Below are positions 1,254 to 63,797 of a stretch of 64,000 nt of DNA, in pieces. Each line of letters opens with the position of its first letter. The first letter of the stretch is position 1. A model generated the notes under the pieces. It had not been told where the DNA came from. It was given only the letters and a program-made list of their open reading frames with translations, and searched no databases. The translations under genes were made by a program, and so were the position numbers. Origin of the DNA: an uncultured Thermoanaerobaculia bacterium (lineage in GTDB: Bacteria; Acidobacteriota; Thermoanaerobaculia; Multivoradales; Multivoraceae); assembly GCA_951813015.1 (NCBI GenBank), contig CATOTG010000002.1:528101-592100 (forward strand). Direction: 5' to 3'.

Positions 1254-2585
1254 CTACTCCCCGCCGCCTGTGCTCTGTATGGAGGCGAGTCCGAGCCGGA
1301 GCGCGATCGGATCGACGGGCTCGACGGGGGCCCAGGCGACGAAGCCGAGCATCATCTCGTCGGTCGTGGCGGTGCCGACGAGCACGTTGTAACCTGGGTC
1401 GAAACCGCGAATCTCGCCGCGCTCGGGCGTGTTCTCGAACCACATCGAGACTTCGACGCGGGTGCCGGCGGGGATCGTCTTCGGCTTCTTGTACCGGTAA
1501 GTCGTCTGCCACTCCTGGTCGTAGTTCGGGACGTCGAGCAGGACCTCGGTCGTGCCGTCGGGGTAGAACGCGTCGTAGCGCACCGCGACCGAGCGCAGAT
1601 GGGCGTGCGGCCACAGGGCCAGAAGGTCCGTCTCCACCGGGAAGACGCGCGCCGCGCCGACCTTCCAGCGGTCGTGGCCGGGCGGTATCTCGAAGGTCAG
1701 GTTGCCGATCGAGTCGAACTCGACCTTGCGCAACTCGCTTTCCGGAGCGTCGGCGAACACGAAGCCGAGCTCGGAGCGATCGTAGAAACCGCTCCCCTCG
1801 CCGGCTTCCTTGTTGTAGTGCATCGAAAAGTCGATCTTCGATCCGGGCTCGAGCTTCATCGCGTAGCCGGGCGCCATCAGGTGGCTCTCGGCGCCCAGGG
1901 CGATACAGCCCAGCGAGTTGCTGCCGAACTTGCCGAATGCCGGCCCGCCGCCTGGAGGCTGGACGCTCGCGCACATGTGATGGACGTCGCTGCCGCCGAC
2001 CTTGAACTCGACGCCACGCACCCAGACAGGCTCCGTCAACATCTCCTCGGTCAGTTCGGTCCGGAAGTTGATGTTGATGTCGGCGATGTCGTCGGCCACC
2101 CAGTGCTCTTCGGGCATCCGGACGACGAGATCCGGACGACCCAGCGACCAACCGCCCGAGCCTTCCTCAACGAACCTCTTCGGCGGCGGCGCGTCGGCCT
2201 CGTCACCGGCAGGCGCACCGCCGCGGGCCCAGGCCAGGACCGTCTCGATCTCGCTGTCGGACATCACGCGCTCGTTGTGGAACTGCCCGCGGGTCGCTTC
2301 GGTGGCGAACCAGGGAGGCATCGAGCGGTTCTCGACCGCGCGCGCGATGGAGCGCGCCCAGGGGCGCGTCTGCTGATACGTCATCAGCGGCATCGGCGCG
2401 ATCATGCCGCCGATGTTCTCGCCCTGGCCGTCGGGCCGGTGACAGGTCTGGCAGTTCTCCTGCAAGACCGGCAGCACGTCGGCGTAGAAGGTGGGCGTGT
2501 CCGCGTCGGCGGCCAGGACGATGCCCGGAAGGGCAAGGGCGGCGGCAAGCATGATGAGGACAGGGCGAAAGGTCGCGGTCTTCAT
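1254..2585 (-). CDS. periplasmic cytochrome c / type II copper monooxygenase-like protein (paralogue 1)
   Basis: This 443-residue exported protein has a cleavable signal (MKTATFRPVLIMLAAALALP) and one heme c motif, CQTCH, near residue 43. A long beta-rich region follows that matches the family annotated as copper type II ascorbate-dependent monooxygenase, C-terminal. Candidate copper-ligand positions are VHHMC, SMHYN and PHAHLRS. The heme could feed electrons to a copper centre, but the reaction is unknown. I chose ATG 2585 because it has GGAGAGAC upstream and yields the signal peptide; the longer ORF start does not. It shares about its whole length and its final STGGGE with the gene at 26189-27508, but here HAH replaces the paralogue's HMH. 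Confidence 0.8.
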   Translation of the reverse strand: MKTATFRPVLIMLAAALALPGIVLAADADTPTFYADVLPVLQENCQTCHRPDGQGENIGGMIAPMPLMTYQQTRPWARSIARAVENRSMPPWFATEATRGQFHNERVMSDSEIETVLAWARGGAPAGDEADAPPPKRFVEEGSGGWSLGRPDLVVRMPEEHWVADDIADININFRTELTEEMLTEPVWVRGVEFKVGGSDVHHMCASVQPPGGGPAFGKFGSNSLGCIALGAESHLMAPGYAMKLEPGSKIDFSMHYNKEAGEGSGFYDRSELGFVFADAPESELRKVEFDSIGNLTFEIPPGHDRWKVGAARVFPVETDLLALWPHAHLRSVAVRYDAFYPDGTTEVLLDVPNYDQEWQTTYRYKKPKTIPAGTRVEVSMWFENTPERGEIRGFDPGYNVLVGTATTDEMMLGFVAWAPVEPVDPIALRLGLASIQSTGGGE

Positions 2586-13160: not shown

Positions 13161-13187
13161 GCGGGAAAACGGCAAGCCGTTTCCCGC
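13161..13187. repeat. near-perfect hairpin next to repeat R1
   Basis: GCGGGAAAACGGC and GCCGTTTCCCGC pair almost perfectly around an AA loop. It directly abuts the first copy of the 118-bp dispersed repeat in the divergent gap before the HupE/UreJ gene. The remaining bases of this roughly 380-bp gap (13006-13160) hold no gene I can support. Confidence 0.5.
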
Positions 13188-13188
13188 C

Positions 13189-13306
13189 GGACCTTGGAAA
13201 CCGGCAGACCGGTTCCCACAGCTACCGCAGCCTTGACGACTGCTCGCCTCTCGGACGGCCTCCGACAGGGACCAGAATCCACCCGGCAAAGGTACAGGTG
13301 GGCCGG
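13189..13306 (+). repeat. dispersed repeat R, copy 1 (about 118 bp)
   Basis: It begins GGACCTTGGAAACCGGCAGA and ends CAAAGGTACAGGTGGGCCGG. Nearly identical blocks occur at 53325-53446 and 61873-62000, all in the same strand orientation and all outside genes. Internal dyads (CCGG-CAGA-CCGG flanked by GGAA/TTCC) are present. This copy lacks the palindromic module P that follows the other two. Confidence 0.85.
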
Positions 13307-17037: not shown

Positions 17038-17070
17038 AGGAGCGTCTGGCGCTGCAGAACCGGCGCTCCT

Positions 17071-17112
17071 CGCCGGATGCCGGCGGGACGCCGACGCACC
17101 CGGTTTCTGCGG
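17071..17112 (+). repeat. dispersed repeat E, copy 1
   Basis: It contains CCGGATGCCGGCGGGACGCC followed by GCACCCGGTTTCTGC. Similar blocks are at 27726-27771 and 63735-63788. It lies in the 126-bp gap between convergent genes. Confidence 0.7.
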
Positions 17113-26202: not shown

Positions 26203-27508
26203 CGGTCGAGCCGGCGCCGCCGGCCGCACGGATCGCCGCCGCCTCTTCGGGCTCGACGTAGGTCCAGGCCAGGAAGGGCGCCATCATCTCGTCCGTGCTT
26301 TGGGCGCCCCAGTCCACCGAGCGCCCGATGTCGAGGAACGGGTACTCGTCGAGCTTCGTCTCGGAGTTGTCGTAGACCGCCTCGATCTCGACCCGGGTGC
26401 CTGCCGGCAGCACCTTGGGATCACGGTAGATGTAGTTCGTCTGCCAACTGTAGTCGTACTCCGGCACGTCGAGGAGCACCTCCGTGCCGCCATCGGGGTA
26501 GTACGCCGTGTACTTCATGCTCTCGCCCCGGAAGTGCATGTGCGGATGGAGCGACAGCAGGACCGCGTCCCTCTCGAACACCCTGGACGACCCGACGCGC
26601 CACCGTCCGTGACCGGGCGGAATCTCGAAGGCGCCGGCGCCGATCGTGTTCCAGGTCACCTTGTGCTTCACCTCGGCGCCGACCGGATGGAACTTGAAGG
26701 CGACCGCCGAACGGTCGAAACCCTCCGTGCCCGGGCCGGGTTCCTTGTGGTAGTGGACGTTCATGCGGACCACCATGCCGGCGCGCAGGAGGTTGCCGAA
26801 GCCCGGCGGGTAGATCGTCGGATCCTCGCCGGCGGCGATGGAACCCAGGGAGAAGGTGTTCTCACTCAGCACGTCGACCTCGCCGTCCTCGTTCGGGATC
26901 AGTGCGCGGCCGGTGATGTGATGGACGAACTCGGCGTCCGGCTGGTACTCGATCGCCTGAATCCAGCGCGGTTCCGGGAGCATCTCCTCGGTCAGCGTGA
27001 TGAAGAAGTTGGGCTGTTCGTCCTCCACGTCGTCACCCACGAAGTAGGGCTCCTCCATGTAGACGATCAGGTCCGGCTGGCCGATCAGGAAACCGCCCGT
27101 GTCCTCCCACTCGCGCGGGGCCGGGCCCCTGGCCGGATCGCCCTTCGGCGCGCCGTGTCCGACCCAGGCCACGACCGTGTCGATCTCGTCCCGGGTCAGG
27201 GTCCGCTCGTTGGCGAAGACCCCGGCCGTGTGGTCGGTCGCGTCCCACGGCGGCATCTCGCGGCTCTGCACCAGGCGCGCGATCGAGCGCGCCCAGGGCC
27301 TCGTTTCCTCGTAGGTCATCAGCGACATCGGCGCCACCATGCCGGCGACGTTGTCCCCGCCCGGCCGATGGCAGGTCTGGCAGCTGTGCTGGAAGATCGG
27401 CAGCACGTGCTCGTGAAAGGTGACTTCCTCGCCCGTGTCGGCGGCGACCGCCACGGAAGCGAGGCCCAGCGTTCCGAGAACGAGAAGTGCAGCGATCGAG
27501 CGGTTCAT
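26189..27508 (-). CDS. periplasmic cytochrome c / type II copper monooxygenase-like protein (paralogue 2)
   Basis: A 439-residue exported protein with signal MNRSIAALLVLGTLGLASVAVAA, heme motif CQTCH near residue 43, and copper-monooxygenase-like beta sandwiches. Candidate metal ligands are FVHHITG, NVHYHKEPG and LHPHMHFRG (near 322). PPWDATDHTAG and TRPWARSIARLV align closely with paralogue 1 at 1254-2585. The reaction is unknown; an oxygen- or peroxide-dependent oxidation of an extracellular substrate is possible. GGAGGCGCGC precedes the ATG. It stands alone in its transcription unit. Confidence 0.8.
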   Translation of the reverse strand: MNRSIAALLVLGTLGLASVAVAADTGEEVTFHEHVLPIFQHSCQTCHRPGGDNVAGMVAPMSLMTYEETRPWARSIARLVQSREMPPWDATDHTAGVFANERTLTRDEIDTVVAWVGHGAPKGDPARGPAPREWEDTGGFLIGQPDLIVYMEEPYFVGDDVEDEQPNFFITLTEEMLPEPRWIQAIEYQPDAEFVHHITGRALIPNEDGEVDVLSENTFSLGSIAAGEDPTIYPPGFGNLLRAGMVVRMNVHYHKEPGPGTEGFDRSAVAFKFHPVGAEVKHKVTWNTIGAGAFEIPPGHGRWRVGSSRVFERDAVLLSLHPHMHFRGESMKYTAYYPDGGTEVLLDVPEYDYSWQTNYIYRDPKVLPAGTRVEIEAVYDNSETKLDEYPFLDIGRSVDWGAQSTDEMMAPFLAWTYVEPEEAAAIRAAGGAGSTGGGE

Positions 27509-27615
27509 GCGCGCCTCCAGCTTCCAACCTGTTGTTCAAGTGGCAGGCGGACTCTAGCAGCCCGCGGCAGAAGTCGCGCTGCATTCGACCGGCCAGGCAT
27601 CCCGCCCGGCATCGT

Positions 27616-27687
27616 GCCATCCGTGCGCCCGATGACGGGCGCACGGACTGGTTCGCGGGTGGCGCGGAGCGCGCCACCCGGGTCGCT
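27616..27687 (+). repeat. palindromic module P, copy A
   Basis: It starts GCCATCCGTGCGCCCGATGA and contains two dyads: GTGCGCCCG/CGGGCGCAC and GGGTGGCGCG/CGCGCCACCC. Translated in one frame it gives RAPDDGRTDWFAGGAERATR, similar to the other copies at 41382, 53450 and 62077. Confidence 0.8.
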
Positions 27688-27725
27688 CTTCGGTCGAACA
27701 TGGATTTCCGAAGACCGGCGCCTGG

Positions 27726-27771
27726 CGCCGGATGCCGGCGGGGACGCCGGCCCACCCGGTTTCTCTCGCGC
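27726..27771 (+). repeat. dispersed repeat E, copy 2
   Basis: CGCCGGATGCCGGCGGGGAC then GCCGGCCCACCCGGTTTC, about 40 bases downstream of palindromic module P copy A. It shares most positions with copies at 17071 and 63735. Confidence 0.7.
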
Positions 27772-27781
27772 AACTCCCGGC

Positions 27782-41313: not shown

Positions 41314-43764
41314 ATGCCGCATCCCCCTCCCTCCGGCCTGACGGTCGCCGCCGCCCTGCTGCTCGCCGCCGGCGCCAGCGCCCAGGAACCCGGCGGGCGC
41401 GATTCCAGGCCAACCGCGAACCAGTCTGTGCGCCCGTCAGCGGGCGCAAGGATGGCACTCACCGGCAGACCCTGGTCCGACATGGACTACGGACCGTACA
41501 AGGTCCATTCCTACATCGTCGAACCGGGCAACAACGCGAACAAGGGCATCGGCATCCGCGTTGACGACGGCCCCGGCGGCGTCGCCAGGGGAACCGAATT
41601 CCTGCTCTTCGACACGGACACCCTGCGCTGGGCCGCGGGCTGGACCGGGCCCGGCTTCATCGACTGGAACTCGATCAACTACAACGGCAGGCACGTCGTC
41701 GAGCCGGCGATCGTGGGCGACTTCGTGTTCACGAATCCGGACTCGCCGGGCTGGTCCCGGGCCGGCGACGACTTCCGGGACACGCGCATCGTGGGCCGCG
41801 GCGGGCGGCGCTTCGGGCCGCAGGATCGCGCCCTCGCGCGCTGGCTCGGGCACTACCTGCACGGGCGCCAGGTCGTGCTGCACTACCAGGTGGGCGACAC
41901 GGAGGTCCTGGAACTCGGCGGCTCGGAAGGCGGCGGGCTGTTCAGCCGCACCCTGAACCTCGGGCCGAGAAACACGGATCTTGTGGTCCAGGTCGCGCAC
42001 CAGAAGGACGGACGAGCCTGGATCGACAACGAAGCGGCCGGCTTCCGCGAGCCGCGCCCGGACGACCCGGCCAGAGGCGAACAGAGCGGCCCCGCCGTCG
42101 CCGCCCTGGTCGCAGCGCCGGCAGACGTCCAGTGGGTCGAGGGCGACGGCGACGACCTCCGCCTGCGCGTTCCGGCCGGCAACGAACCCGTCCGTTTCAA
42201 GATCGTGATCGGCCGCCGCGGCAGATCGAACGCCGGCTTCTTGGCCCGCGCGGCAGGAGTTGCCCCGGCGATCGATCTCGAACCACTGACCCGCGGCGGC
42301 CCGGCACGGTGGACCGAGACGGTCACGACCGAAAGCCGGGTCCTCGGCCGCCGCGGCGGCCCCTTCGAGCTCGAGGCGATCACCGCGCCTCTCGACAACC
42401 CCTACCGGTCGTGGATGCGCCTGGGCGGCTTCGACTTCCTCGACGGCGGCCGCCGCGCGGCGGTCGCCACCTGGATGGGCGACGTCTGGATCGTCGACGG
42501 GCTGGGCGGCGACGAGATCGGCGAGATCACCTGGAAGCGCTTCGCCACCGGGCTCTATGAGCCGCTCGGCGTCAACACGCGAGGCGGCGAGATCTTCGTC
42601 ACCTCCCGCGACCAGATCACCCGCCTCCACGACCTGAACGGCGATGGCGAGGCGGACCGCTACGAGGCCTTCAACCACGACGCCCAGGCCTCGGCCCACT
42701 TCCACGAGTTCGCAGTGGGGCTGGAAGCGGACGCGGAGGGAAACTTCTACTACGCCAAGGGCGCGGGACACGACTTCGACGCTCGCGTACCCCAGCACGG
42801 CACGATCCTCAAGGTCTCCGCCGACGGCGCCTCGACCCGGATCGTCGCCAACGGTTTCCGCGCGCCGAATGGCCTCGTCGTCAATCCGGACGGGAGCGTG
42901 ATCGTGACCGACCAGGAAGGACACTGGACTCCGGAGAACCGGATCAACTGGGTCGAGCCGGGAACCTTCCACGGCTACATGCGGGCCTGGCGCGAGCCCG
43001 ACCGGGATCCGGAGGACTTCGTCCAGCCGATGACCTGGATCCACCACGACGTGGACCGCTCTCCCTCGGCGCCGGTGTGGGTACGCAGCGTTCGCTGGGG
43101 CGAACTGGACGGGTCGCTGATCTACCTGTCCTACGGCAACGGCAAGATCTTCTCCGTGCTCTTCGACCAGGCCTTCGTGCGGGGCTCCCCGGCAGGCGAC
43201 GGTCCGCCGCGTCAGGCCGCCGTGGTCGAACTGCCCATAGCAGCCGCGCCCACCGGCCTGGTCCGGGGGCGCTTCAATTCCGCCGACGATCACCTCTACG
43301 TCTGCGGACTGTTCGCCTGGGCGGGCGACCGGACTCAGGCCGGCGGCTTCTACCGCGTCCGGCGCATGGACCAGCCGCTGCGCATTCCGGTGGCCTGGGA
43401 AACCGCCTCCGACGGCATCGTCGTCCGCTTCAGCACCGTTCTCGATCCCGAGGCCGCCGCCGATCCGGGCAACTACTCCATGCGGATCTGGCAGTACCTG
43501 CGCCAGGCCAGCTACGGCTCCGAGGACTACCGGGTGCTCGGCGAGGGCATCGGCGACGACGACCTGCCGATCCCCTCGGTGACCCTCTCCGCCGACGGCC
43601 GCTCGGTGTTCGTCGAGATCCCGGACATCCTCCCGGTGCAGCAGGTCCACCTCGAGATGAACCTCCGAAGCGCGGACGGCGCCAGAATGCGCGAGTTCAT
43701 CCACGGCACGATCCACGAGCTGGGATCCCGCACCGGCGCCGAGGTCCTCGCAGGCGCCAACTGA
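41314..43764 (+). CDS. secreted DUF6797-type sorbosone/glucose dehydrogenase-like propeller with an in-frame palindromic repeat
   Basis: An 816-residue exported protein. After signal TVAAALLLAAGASAQ comes a 25-codon stretch encoded by palindromic repeat module P (QEPGGRDSRPTANQSVRPSA). A DUF6797-like domain follows (SDMDYGPYKVHSYIVEP). Residues from about 360 form a sorbosone-dehydrogenase-type propeller (EPLGVNTRGGEIFVTSRDQI, FRAPNGLVVNPDGSVIVTDQ). It is probably a periplasmic oxidoreductase or sensor. It lies 19 bp upstream of a pentaheme cytochrome, its likely electron partner. The repeat insertion may be tolerated because it sits in a flexible linker. Confidence 0.75.
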   Translation: MPHPPPSGLTVAAALLLAAGASAQEPGGRDSRPTANQSVRPSAGARMALTGRPWSDMDYGPYKVHSYIVEPGNNANKGIGIRVDDGPGGVARGTEFLLFDTDTLRWAAGWTGPGFIDWNSINYNGRHVVEPAIVGDFVFTNPDSPGWSRAGDDFRDTRIVGRGGRRFGPQDRALARWLGHYLHGRQVVLHYQVGDTEVLELGGSEGGGLFSRTLNLGPRNTDLVVQVAHQKDGRAWIDNEAAGFREPRPDDPARGEQSGPAVAALVAAPADVQWVEGDGDDLRLRVPAGNEPVRFKIVIGRRGRSNAGFLARAAGVAPAIDLEPLTRGGPARWTETVTTESRVLGRRGGPFELEAITAPLDNPYRSWMRLGGFDFLDGGRRAAVATWMGDVWIVDGLGGDEIGEITWKRFATGLYEPLGVNTRGGEIFVTSRDQITRLHDLNGDGEADRYEAFNHDAQASAHFHEFAVGLEADAEGNFYYAKGAGHDFDARVPQHGTILKVSADGASTRIVANGFRAPNGLVVNPDGSVIVTDQEGHWTPENRINWVEPGTFHGYMRAWREPDRDPEDFVQPMTWIHHDVDRSPSAPVWVRSVRWGELDGSLIYLSYGNGKIFSVLFDQAFVRGSPAGDGPPRQAAVVELPIAAAPTGLVRGRFNSADDHLYVCGLFAWAGDRTQAGGFYRVRRMDQPLRIPVAWETASDGIVVRFSTVLDPEAAADPGNYSMRIWQYLRQASYGSEDYRVLGEGIGDDDLPIPSVTLSADGRSVFVEIPDILPVQQVHLEMNLRSADGARMREFIHGTIHELGSRTGAEVLAGAN
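41382..41456 (-). repeat. palindromic module P, copy D, inside a coding region
   Basis: Exactly 75 bp long, so the frame is kept. On the minus strand it starts GCCATCCTTGCGCCCGCTGA and matches copies A, B and C, including the GCGCCCG/CGGGCGC dyad. The second dyad has decayed. It lies right after the signal peptide of the dehydrogenase. Confidence 0.8.
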
Positions 43765-53324: not shown

Positions 53325-53446
53325 GGACCTTGGAAGACCGGCAGACCGGTTTCCCACAGCTACCGCAGCCTCGTCGACTACTCGCCTCTCGGACGGCCTG
53401 GGACAGGGACCAGAATTCACACCCAGCAAAGGTACAGGTGCGCCGG
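53325..53446 (+). repeat. dispersed repeat R, copy 2
   Basis: It begins GGACCTTGGAAGACCGGCAG and ends CAAAGGTACAGGTGCGCCGG, nearly identical to copies at 13189 and 61873. It is followed directly by palindromic module P. It lies between the convergent stops of the acetoacetyl-CoA synthetase and M16 peptidase genes. Confidence 0.85.
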
Positions 53447-53449
53447 ACC

Positions 53450-53526
53450 GCCATTCGTGCGCCCGATGGCGGGCGCACGGTCTGGTTCACGGGTGGCGCG
53501 AGTCGCGCCACCCGGGTTCTGGCCGG
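53450..53526 (+). repeat. palindromic module P, copy B
   Basis: Starts GCCATTCGTGCGCCCGATGG and has two intact dyads (GTGCGCCCG/CGGGCGCAC and GGGTGGCGCGA/TCGCGCCACCC). One frame reads RAPDGGRTVWFTGGASRATR. Adjacent to repeat R copy 2. Confidence 0.85.
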
Positions 53527-53542
53527 CTCTGCTCTGCAGGCT

Positions 53543-61872: not shown

Positions 61873-62000
61873 GGACCTTGGAAACCGGCAGACCGGTTCC
61901 CACAGCTGCCCCGGCCTCGACGACGACTCGCCTCTCGGACAGCCTCGGACAGGGACCAGAATCCGCCCGGCAAAGGTGCCCGGCAAAGGTACAGCGCGCC
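61873..62000 (+). repeat. dispersed repeat R, copy 3, with partial re-duplication
   Basis: It begins GGACCTTGGAAACCGGCAGA and ends CGGCAAAGGTACAGCGCGCC, with an internal short re-duplication of GCCCGGCAAAGGT. The tail of the unit (GGGACCAGAGTCCGCCCAGC) is repeated again at 62035-62072 before module P. Confidence 0.85.
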
Positions 62001-62076
62001 GCGCCCGAGGCGTCGAGGATGTTCTGCGTCGAGCGGGGACCAGAGTCCGCCCAGCAAAGGTACAGCGCGCCGGCCC

Positions 62077-62151
62077 GCCATCCGCGCCCGCTGACGGGCG
62101 CACGGACCGGTTCGCCCGTGGAGCGTCCCGGGCAACGCGGGTCCTGGCCGG
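62077..62151 (+). repeat. palindromic module P, copy C
   Basis: Starts GCCATCCGCGCCCGCTGACG; one frame reads APADGRTDRFARGASRATRV. 75 bp, like copy D. The second dyad is partly decayed. It ends 3 bases before the sulfatase stop. Confidence 0.8.
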
Positions 62152-62153
62152 CA

Positions 62154-63797
62154 TCAAGGCGCGCTGCCGGGAAGCGGCGCGCGCGAACCGCCGTCGCCAG
62201 GATCGAAGTACTTCTCGACGATCCAGTCCGGCTGCCAGCGGTCCGGTTCGCGTCTTGTGCCGGTGAGATCGCGGTGCAGCGGCGCCGGGTCGGGGACCGA
62301 GAGCGGCACAGTGTCGCCCATCGCCGCCTGCCAGCCTTCCAGGAGGGCTTCGAGGCGGACCGCGGTTTCCCTGTGCTCGGGATCAAGGATGAGGTTCTCC
62401 AGTTCGTCCGGGTCGTCCGCAAGGTCGAACAACTGGCGGTAGTTCACGTTCGGATAGACGATCAGCTTGTAGCGGTCGTCCCGCACCGCGCGCATCACGT
62501 CCCGGTAGGGCAGGAACACGCTCTTGCGCCAGGCCGGATCGCCGCCGGACCAGAGCGGGGCGAGATCCCGGCCGTCGATGCCCGGCGGCGCCTCGACGGC
62601 GCCCCGTGCGAGCAGGGTCGGGAAGAGGTCGAACAGGTAGGTCAAGGCGTCGGTCGAGCCGTGCGGGATGCCCGGGCCGCGGATGATCAGCGGGCAGCGC
62701 ATCGAGTGCTCGTAGAGGTTCTGCTTGCCCAGGAGGCCGTGGCTGCCGACCGACAGGCCGTGGTCCGCGGCGTAGACGACGATCGTGTTCTCCGCCTGGC
62801 CGTTCTCGTCCAGGGCTTTCAGGATGCGGCCCACCTGTTCGTCGAGGTGGGTGATCAGGCCGTAGTACTCGGCGACCTGGTCGCGGATGACATCCTCGGT
62901 CCGTGGCCAGGCGGCCAGGTTCTCGTCACGCAGGATGAGCGCGCCGTTGTCGAACGGGTGCTGCGGCATGTAGTTGGGCGGCAGCGGAAGGTTGCGCTCG
63001 TAGTAGCGCTCCCGGTACTCGGGGGGCGGCTGGCGCGGATCGTGGGGCGCGGTGAAGGGCACGTAGGCGAAGAACGGCCGGTCCGACTCTCCGCGTTCCC
63101 CGGCCGAGGCCCGCTCGTCCAGGAACTCGATCACCGCGTCCGCGAACAGCTCGCTGGAGAACGTCTCCCCCACGCGTCGCCTGACCATCCCGCCGTTCTC
63201 GATGTCCTGCACCTCCGTTCGGGTGTGATCGGCCATGCCGCCCAGGTAGACCGCCGTGCCCCGGTCGAAGCTCCGCAGCAGAGCCTCCTCGCCGTTGTGC
63301 CACTTGCCGGTGATGAAGGTGCGGTAGCCGCCCGCCTCCAGCAGCCGCGGCAAGGTCGGCGCCCCCTCCATGCGGTTCGGCGAGCGCATCCAGCTACGGC
63401 CAGTCAGCACCATCGCCCGGCTGGGCACGCAAACGGCGCCGCTGTTCGAGCCGAAGACGTAGTTGCGCCGGAAGCTCCACCCCTCGGCCACGATTCGATC
63501 CAGGTTGGGGGTGTCGATCAGGTCGTTGCCCCAGGCGCCGATCGTGTCGGCCCGCTGGTCGTCCGCGAAGAGGAACAGGATGTTCGGTTGAAACAGCGGC
63601 GGCTGCGACTCGAGGCTGCCGGCTGGCTCGTCGGCCGCGCGGGGCGCGCAGGAAAGCACTGCCAGGGCCGCCGCGGCCACCAGGACCGCTGGCCGGGCGA
63701 ACCGACCCGGCCCCTGGCCGGCACGTTCAGTGGCCGCCTCCGGCGGCAGCCGGCGGGGACGCCGGCGCACCCGGTTTCTGCCGCGCAAGGTCCCCAT
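62154..63797 (-). CDS. sulfatase (type I, formylglycine-dependent)
   Basis: A 547-residue alkaline-phosphatase-superfamily sulfatase. Motifs: NILFLFADDQRADTIGAWGN (metal aspartates), CVPSRAMVLTGR near 123 (the cysteine converted to formylglycine), TFITGKWHNGEEA, FTAPHDPRQPPPEYRERYYE and VVYAADHGLSVGSHGLLGKQ. It would hydrolyse sulfate esters of a glycan or other substrate. The first 25 residues (GTLRGRNRVRRRPRRLPPEA) are encoded by dispersed repeat E; a hydrophobic segment with lipobox-like VLSCAP follows. GTG 63800 (overlapping the upstream stop) is an alternative start. Confidence 0.87.
   Translation of the reverse strand: MGTLRGRNRVRRRPRRLPPEAATERAGQGPGRFARPAVLVAAAALAVLSCAPRAADEPAGSLESQPPLFQPNILFLFADDQRADTIGAWGNDLIDTPNLDRIVAEGWSFRRNYVFGSNSGAVCVPSRAMVLTGRSWMRSPNRMEGAPTLPRLLEAGGYRTFITGKWHNGEEALLRSFDRGTAVYLGGMADHTRTEVQDIENGGMVRRRVGETFSSELFADAVIEFLDERASAGERGESDRPFFAYVPFTAPHDPRQPPPEYRERYYERNLPLPPNYMPQHPFDNGALILRDENLAAWPRTEDVIRDQVAEYYGLITHLDEQVGRILKALDENGQAENTIVVYAADHGLSVGSHGLLGKQNLYEHSMRCPLIIRGPGIPHGSTDALTYLFDLFPTLLARGAVEAPPGIDGRDLAPLWSGGDPAWRKSVFLPYRDVMRAVRDDRYKLIVYPNVNYRQLFDLADDPDELENLILDPEHRETAVRLEALLEGWQAAMGDTVPLSVPDPAPLHRDLTGTRREPDRWQPDWIVEKYFDPGDGGSRAPLPGSAP
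63735..63788 (+). repeat. dispersed repeat E, copy 3, overlapping the sulfatase start
   Basis: GCCGGCGGGGACGCCGGCGC then ACCCGGTTTCTGCCGCGCAA, matching copies at 17071 and 27726. On the minus strand it encodes the arginine-rich leader of the sulfatase. Confidence 0.7.

What the first reader, a model, noticed from the sequence alone, without database searches (positions are those of the whole stretch)
53325..53526. Composite repeat (R plus palindromic module P) recurring in intergenic gaps
A roughly 118-bp unit R is found at 13189, 53325 and 61873; two of the three are followed directly by palindromic module P. Module P also occurs alone (27616) and in a gene (41382). All intergenic copies share orientation. 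Module P has one conserved reading frame (RAPdGRTdWFagGasRATR) despite lying outside genes. No transposase for it is in the window. It may be a non-autonomous mobile element or a conserved regulatory RNA.
Basis: seen in the sequence. Interest (0 to 1): 0.6.

Follow-up and report, generated by a model that had tools for sequence, protein, structure and literature searches.

The report
Truncated IS110 ends inside REP-like repeats
The repeat is the cut-off left end of a jumping gene of the RNA-guided IS110 family, sitting at one exact spot inside older hairpin repeats; dozens of gene-less copies with a few standard lengths are scattered through this Acidobacteriota genome and a close relative.

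Summary
R is the left-end tip of an IS110-family element: in a complete genome of the same genus (OX638294.1, uncultured Thermoanaerobaculia) the whole 1,754-bp element occurs six times at 99.8% identity, with a DEDD transposase and a predicted bridge RNA whose four guides match target or donor DNA over 7 nt each. The target is the left shoulder of palindromic REP-like repeats (P and relatives): AC(C/T)G-GG-TGCGCC, core GG. R copies keep the same right end, but their left ends fall at a few internal GG dinucleotides (lengths 46, 89, 112, 137, 155, 202), joined to the target's ACYG. They carry neither transposase nor guides. How the truncated forms arise, and whether they still move in trans, is inferred, not shown.

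The parts
53325..53438 (+). R: IS110 left-end tip, 112-class (GGACCTTGG ... GTACAGG); + is antisense to the lost transposase
   Evidence: Matches the last 112-118 nt of the full element in G019, about 95% identical
53437..53527 (+). P: REP-like repeat with two hairpins; its first bases GG-TGCGCCGG are the core and right half of the insertion target
   Evidence: at this site congeners have a REP-like repeat without R or no repeat at all
13164..13298 (+). R: IS110 left-end tip, 137-class (GGAAAACGG ... GTACAGG), right target half TGGGCCGG, no P behind it
   Evidence: L059
61873..61995 (+). R: 112-class tip with a small duplication near its right end (GGCAAAGGTGCCCGGCAAAGGTACAG); the same insertion is in G019
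   Evidence: L074 / L202
62031..62066 (+). Second, partial R tip (GGGGACCAGAGTCCGCCCAGCAAAGGTACAG)
   Evidence: repeat D18; weak match C2:590136
62064..62154 (+). Diverged P (REP-like repeat) behind the second tip
27614..27683 (+). P without the left target shoulder
63741..63788 (-). Vacant REP-like repeat with an intact target (TTGCGCGGCAGAAACCGGGTGCGCCGGCGTCCCCGCCGGC on the - strand)
   Evidence: Target pattern at C2:591862-591875 (-); repeats D5, D7, I9
41416..41447 (-). One P hairpin in reverse orientation near the start of ORF 41314-43764 (DUF6797)
   Evidence: Repeat I3, 94% complementary; Pfam

Best explanation
R is the left-end tip of a bridge-RNA-guided IS110-family insertion sequence, placed at the core GG of a REP-like repeat (P and related modules). 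The full element (G019, 1,754 bp core to core) carries a DEDD transposase and, between R and the transposase start, a predicted bridge RNA whose target loop matches AAACCG-GG-TGCGCC and whose donor loop matches the element's own ends. R copies are a nested set of derivatives: the right end is fixed at the true tip, the left end lies at one of a few internal GG dinucleotides and is joined to the target's AC(C/T)G. The recurring GG-to-GG junctions suggest that the IS110 recombinase made them by using an internal GG (mostly GGA, as in the true end GGACTTCCC) as a substitute right end. Shown by sequence: parent, ends, target, core, precise insertion, discrete breakpoints, absence of gene and guides in R. 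Inferred: bridge RNA function, recombinase-made truncation.
For: Parent: six 1.76-kb copies at 99.8% identity in G019 with R at one end; ORF hits DEDD_Tnp_IS110 (9e-38) and Transposase_20 (5e-13). Target and core: all six copies read ACCG|GG ACTTCCC...GTACA GG|TGCGCC. Nested forms: 54 gene-less copies in two genomes; about 47 fall into length classes 112 (21), 155 (15), 202 (6), 137 (2), 89 and 46, with left flank mostly ACCG or ACTG; seven fit no class. Five of six breakpoints used are GGA although only 9 of 36 GG sites are (p 0.0018). Insertion: filled/empty pairs L181/L055, L198/L239 and L128/L057; window site in 17 congeners. Guides: four 7-nt exact runs in the two predicted loops, 0 of 3,000 shuffles of the left end with all four.
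Against: No full-length element was found in G000 itself, only a right-end remnant, so the parent is known from a congener. The window's 53325 copy has GCCGCCCGCC rather than ACYG before its GG, and seven of 54 copies have other left ends. In IS621 left-donor mismatches are poorly tolerated (PMC11208160), whereas the substitute ends match the true left donor at only 2-4 of 7 positions, so the truncation step is not explained by the known rules. Some 'empty' sites could be sites of later scarless excision. Bridge RNA is predicted, not observed. Shared insertions are counted in both genomes.
Confidence: 0.85

Rival explanations
1. Trans-mobilised satellites (MITE model): the 112-, 155- and 202-nt forms are themselves elements that excise as mini-circles and insert at new REP targets, with recombinase and bridge RNA supplied by a full-length copy. 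Same parent and target as the best explanation, but the minis themselves multiply.
For: L181, which entered its site after the two genomes parted (or was lost from G000), is only 94.6-95.5% like all six full copies, which are 99.8% alike, so it is not a freshly shortened current copy. LE tips are common and right-end remnants nearly absent in the held sequence: only L166 in G000.
Against: No tight clusters of near-identical minis except shared insertions, and length classes are interleaved on the tip tree (19 changes, least possible 5), which points to repeated formation. Poor left-donor match, 2-4 of 7.
Confidence: 0.35
2. Ordinary decay: full IS110 copies inserted in REPs and then lost everything but the left tip by deletions not made by the recombinase (for example at short microhomologies).
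For: GG is shared between the target core and the internal sites, so a 2-bp microhomology exists; the tip tree has classes in both lineages. G000 holds one plainly random remnant (L166).
Against: About 47 of 54 copies use the same few GG sites, 5 of 6 used sites are GGA (p 0.0018), and the left junction sits exactly at the target core; random deletions would also remove flanking target or left tip.
Confidence: 0.12
3. R+P as one composite element moved by a RAYT (REP/BIME model, the first reader's lead).
For: P behaves like a REP: two conserved hairpins with compensatory changes, copies at gene 3' ends; RAYT-type genes flanked by inverted REP-like repeats in relatives.
Against: R has its own parent element and its own ends; P occurs without R and R without P; at the window's site the REP-like repeat is present without R in six congeners. 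No Y1_Tnp in G000 or G019.
Confidence: 0.02
4. A conserved regulatory RNA or regulatory site near gene ends.
For: Strong 3'-end bias and shared orientation; hairpin pairing in P.
Against: Presence differs between close relatives; no Rfam match; P's frame is not kept. The position is explained by REP-like repeats being tolerated behind stop codons.
Confidence: 0.03

Closest known systems
IS621 and other REP-targeting IS110-family elements (ISPa11, ISPpu9, ISPpu10, ISRm19; PMC1525189, PMC11208160)
   Same: DEDD transposase with Transposase_20 domain, no terminal inverted repeats, insertion into REP sequences at a dinucleotide core, left-end non-coding RNA with target and donor loops
   Different: Core is GG and target ACYG-GG-TGCGCC; host is Acidobacteriota; most copies are gene-less left tips with fixed internal breakpoints
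Coxiella QMITE2 with IS1111 inserted in its REP (PMC5896051)
   Same: A REP-bearing small repeat at gene 3' ends acts as landing site for an IS110-superfamily element
   Different: There the intact IS1111 is inserted; here the landing site mostly holds truncated tips
MITEs
   Same: Short, gene-less derivatives of an insertion sequence, many per genome
   Different: No terminal inverted repeats; only one true end kept; I found no described mini-elements of an IS110 in the papers searched
REP/RAYT (BIME) systems (PMC2817692)
   Same: P: short hairpins, many copies outside genes, RAYT-type genes between inverted REP-like repeats in congeners
   Different: RAYT not found in this genome; no classical GTAG head seen; explains P, not R

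Membership tests
IS110 family (parent element of R) | DEDD RuvC-like transposase with C-terminal Transposase_20 domain | tested here: met
   PF01548 E 9.1e-38, PF02371 E 5e-13
IS110 family (parent element of R) | Site-specific insertion with a short core repeated at both junctions, no terminal inverted repeats | tested here: met
   Six copies: ACCG|GG...GG|TGCGCC; filled/empty pairs with one GG in the empty site
IS110 family (parent element of R) | Bridge RNA in the non-coding end with loops complementary to target and donor | tested here: met
   By prediction only: two stem-loops with four 7-nt matches; RNA and function not observed
MITE / non-autonomous IS110 derivative (R) | Derived from an identifiable parent, lacking its gene | tested here: met
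MITE / non-autonomous IS110 derivative (R) | Both ends usable by the parent recombinase, so that the mini-element moves itself | tested here: inconclusive
   Right end intact; substitute left end matches the true left donor at 2-4 of 7 positions; site pairs show arrival, not the route
MITE (classical) | Terminal inverted repeats | tested here: not met
   Ends GGACCTTGG / GTACAGG are not inverted repeats
REP/RAYT (for P) | Short hairpin repeats in many copies outside genes | tested here: met
REP/RAYT (for P) | Cognate Y1_Tnp gene flanked by inverted REPs | tested here: inconclusive
   Met in congeners L220, L223, L224; absent in G000 and G019; cognacy to P itself not tested
REP/RAYT (for P) | GTAG/GTGG-type head next to the hairpin | tested here: inconclusive
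   Constant shoulder is GGGTGCGCCGGC; no classical head seen

The most novel reading that the evidence does not exclude
IS110 elements spawn guide-less, transposase-less satellites: the bridge recombinase repeatedly takes internal GGA sites as substitute ends, and the resulting 112-202-nt tips are inserted at REP cores in trans, outnumbering and outliving the parent.
Probability: 0.35. Interest if true: 0.65.

Novelty: new variant of a known kind. Interest (0 to 1): 0.5.

Why it matters
IS110 bridge recombinases are new genome-editing tools, and how strictly they read their own ends matters. A natural record of dozens of junctions at the core dinucleotide, but with poorly matching left donors, would show that one donor half can be replaced in nature. 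It also resolves a composite intergenic repeat into layers (gene 3' end, REP-like repeat, IS110 tip) and gives short markers of past IS110 activity in genomes where the transposase is gone.

Tried and rejected
(1) Rfam scan of the window: nothing. (2) RAYT as the mover of R: no Y1_Tnp in G000; kept for P only. (3) R as coding: its frame and the stretch upstream in G001 looked protein-like, but in the parent element R lies outside and antisense to the transposase gene. (4) R itself as the bridge RNA: the guide matches lie outside R, between R and the transposase start. (5) P as a peptide-coding unit: frame broken. (6) A TIR-type MITE with 'TGCGCGGCAGAA' ends for the REP-like repeats: noticed, not pursued. 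(7) Tree of R tips: two lineages at 99/99 but only 112 columns and most forks weak, so class counts are a hint; a one-base indel marker in the tip hairpin does not sort cleanly with the two lineages. (8) Literature on IS110 mini-elements: none found in the open library, which lacks most subscription papers and bioRxiv.

Full report
Observation. The three R copies, the P copies and their order are in the sequence as described. The window lies at C2:528101-592100 of a 4.32-Mb, 14-contig genome (G000). Searches of that genome give about 30 R copies and at least 40 P copies, so this is a dispersed repeat and not a segmental duplication. P's proposed reading frame is not kept: anchor spacing is 84, 86 or 87 nt, and indels and stops break the frame in many copies.

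What R is. In same-genus genomes R behaved like the end of a larger repeat: in G001 near-identical R copies lie 127 bp from contig ends, as expected of a collapsed multi-copy element. In the complete genome G019 (OX638294.1, uncultured Thermoanaerobaculia bacterium) R is the end of a 1.76-kb repeat present six times at about 99.8% identity. Its long ORF (423 aa) is an IS110-family transposase: DEDD_Tnp_IS110 E 9e-38 and Transposase_20 E 5e-13. R is the outer part of the non-coding end upstream of the transposase, and its + strand is antisense to that gene. G000 keeps a right-end remnant of this element and three partial matches to other IS110 transposases.

Target and core. Read in the R orientation, the six full copies are ACCG|GG ACTTCCC ... 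GTACA GG|TGCGCC. The target is thus ACYG-GG-TGCGCCGG, the constant left shoulder of a family of REP-like palindromic repeats, of which P is one member. Intact, vacant targets number 73 in G000 and 44 in G019, against 0 for a reversed control pattern.

Nested truncated forms. Of 54 gene-less R copies examined in G000 and G019, most end at the same right tip (AAAGGTACAGG|TGCGCC) but begin at a small set of internal GG dinucleotides: 112 nt (21 copies), 155 (15), 202 (6), and a few at 137, 89 and 46, mostly joined to the target's ACCG or ACTG; about seven copies fit no class. Insertions shared by both genomes are counted twice here. Of 36 GG sites in the terminal 420 nt, nine are GGA as in the true end GGACTTCCC; five of the six used are GGA (p 0.0018). 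On a tree of the 112-nt tips the length classes are interleaved (19 changes, least possible 5), so the same breakpoints probably arose more than once; the tree is short and mostly weakly supported.

Insertion is shown by site pairs. G019 L181 (112-class) against G000 L055: flanks 99.6% identical, empty site ...ctcggctg|GGTGCGCCGG, filled ...ctcgaatg|GG-R-GG|TGCGCC. L198 against L239 is alike at 98.4%. A third, 89-class, is L128 against L057. Several copies are shared by both genomes at the same place, among them the window's 61873 copy, so activity was spread over time. At the window's 53325 site, between an acetyl-CoA-synthetase-like gene and an M16 peptidase gene, eight congeners have only a 10-14-bp gap, six have a REP-like repeat with the target and no R, G000 has R plus P, and G019 has a rearranged R tip. 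The simplest order is REP-like repeat first, IS110 tip second.

Bridge RNA. Between R and the transposase start (sense positions about 215-358 of the 398-nt left end) the sequence folds into two stems with internal loops. The first holds CGCGCACC and TAACCGGG, which match the left and right target guides expected for this site over 7 contiguous nt; the second holds GGGAAGTT and AGTACAGG, which match the left and right donor guides over 7 nt. No one of 3,000 shuffles had all four. The pairing rules are those of IS621 (PMC11208160). R has none of these loops, so R copies cannot guide themselves.

How it most likely works. Shown: parent, target, core, precise insertion, discrete core-to-core breakpoints, absence of gene and guides in R. 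Inferred: the recombinase accepts internal GGA sites in place of the true right end, either on excision (small circles that insert elsewhere) or in place after insertion. For movement of the minis speak a recently placed copy that is about 5% different from every full copy and the near absence of right-end remnants in the held sequence; against it speak the interleaved classes and the poor left-donor match (2-4 of 7), since such mismatches are poorly tolerated in IS621 (PMC11208160). Both stay open.

Module P. P has two hairpins (about 95% of cells paired; four pairs changed on both sides; covariation score above all 500 shuffles), as REP sequences do. Y1_Tnp genes of RAYT type occur in 12 of 20 congeners, in three inspected cases with inverted GGTGCGCCGGC repeats on both sides, but not in G000 or G019. 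P is best taken as a REP-like repeat whose mover is no longer present here. Truncated R copies lie behind gene ends in 42 of 54 cases against 67 of 400 random points.

Comparison. IS110-family insertion into REPs is known (IS621, ISPa11, ISPpu9, ISPpu10; PMC1525189, PMC11208160), and so is IS1111 in the REP-bearing QMITE2 of Coxiella (PMC5896051). Left-tip mini-elements of an IS110 with breakpoints at the core dinucleotide were not found in the papers searched. The finding is a new variant of a known kind.

Noticed in passing
L220, L223, L224 (congeners G007, G010, G014): RAYT-type Y1_Tnp genes (224 aa in L224, with the motif MPNHVHVLVEP) sit between inverted pairs of REP-like repeats; the gene is not found in G000 and G019 although their REP-like repeats persist.
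   Followed up: partly
window 61873-62154: Two R tips in tandem before P, one with a short internal duplication; the same arrangement is in G019 (L202).
   Followed up: partly
window 41416-41447: Half of a P palindrome lies in reverse orientation near the start of the DUF6797 ORF 41314-43764, possibly a REP-like insertion inside or just before a gene.
   Followed up: no
window 17059-17110, 27714-27773, 63741-63788: A further REP-like module (CCGGATGCCGGCGGGGACGCCGGCGCACCCGGTTTCTGCCGCGC) shares the IS110 target with P but has another hairpin.
   Followed up: partly
window 2269-2423 and 27204-27358: A 155-nt direct repeat, 75% identical, 25 kb apart (D2), not related to R or P.
   Followed up: no
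G001 contigs C10, C24, C30, C45, C66, C189, C194, C206: Contigs end about 126 bp outside R, so this congener probably holds many full copies of a related IS110 that its assembly lost; no transposase was found there.
   Followed up: partly
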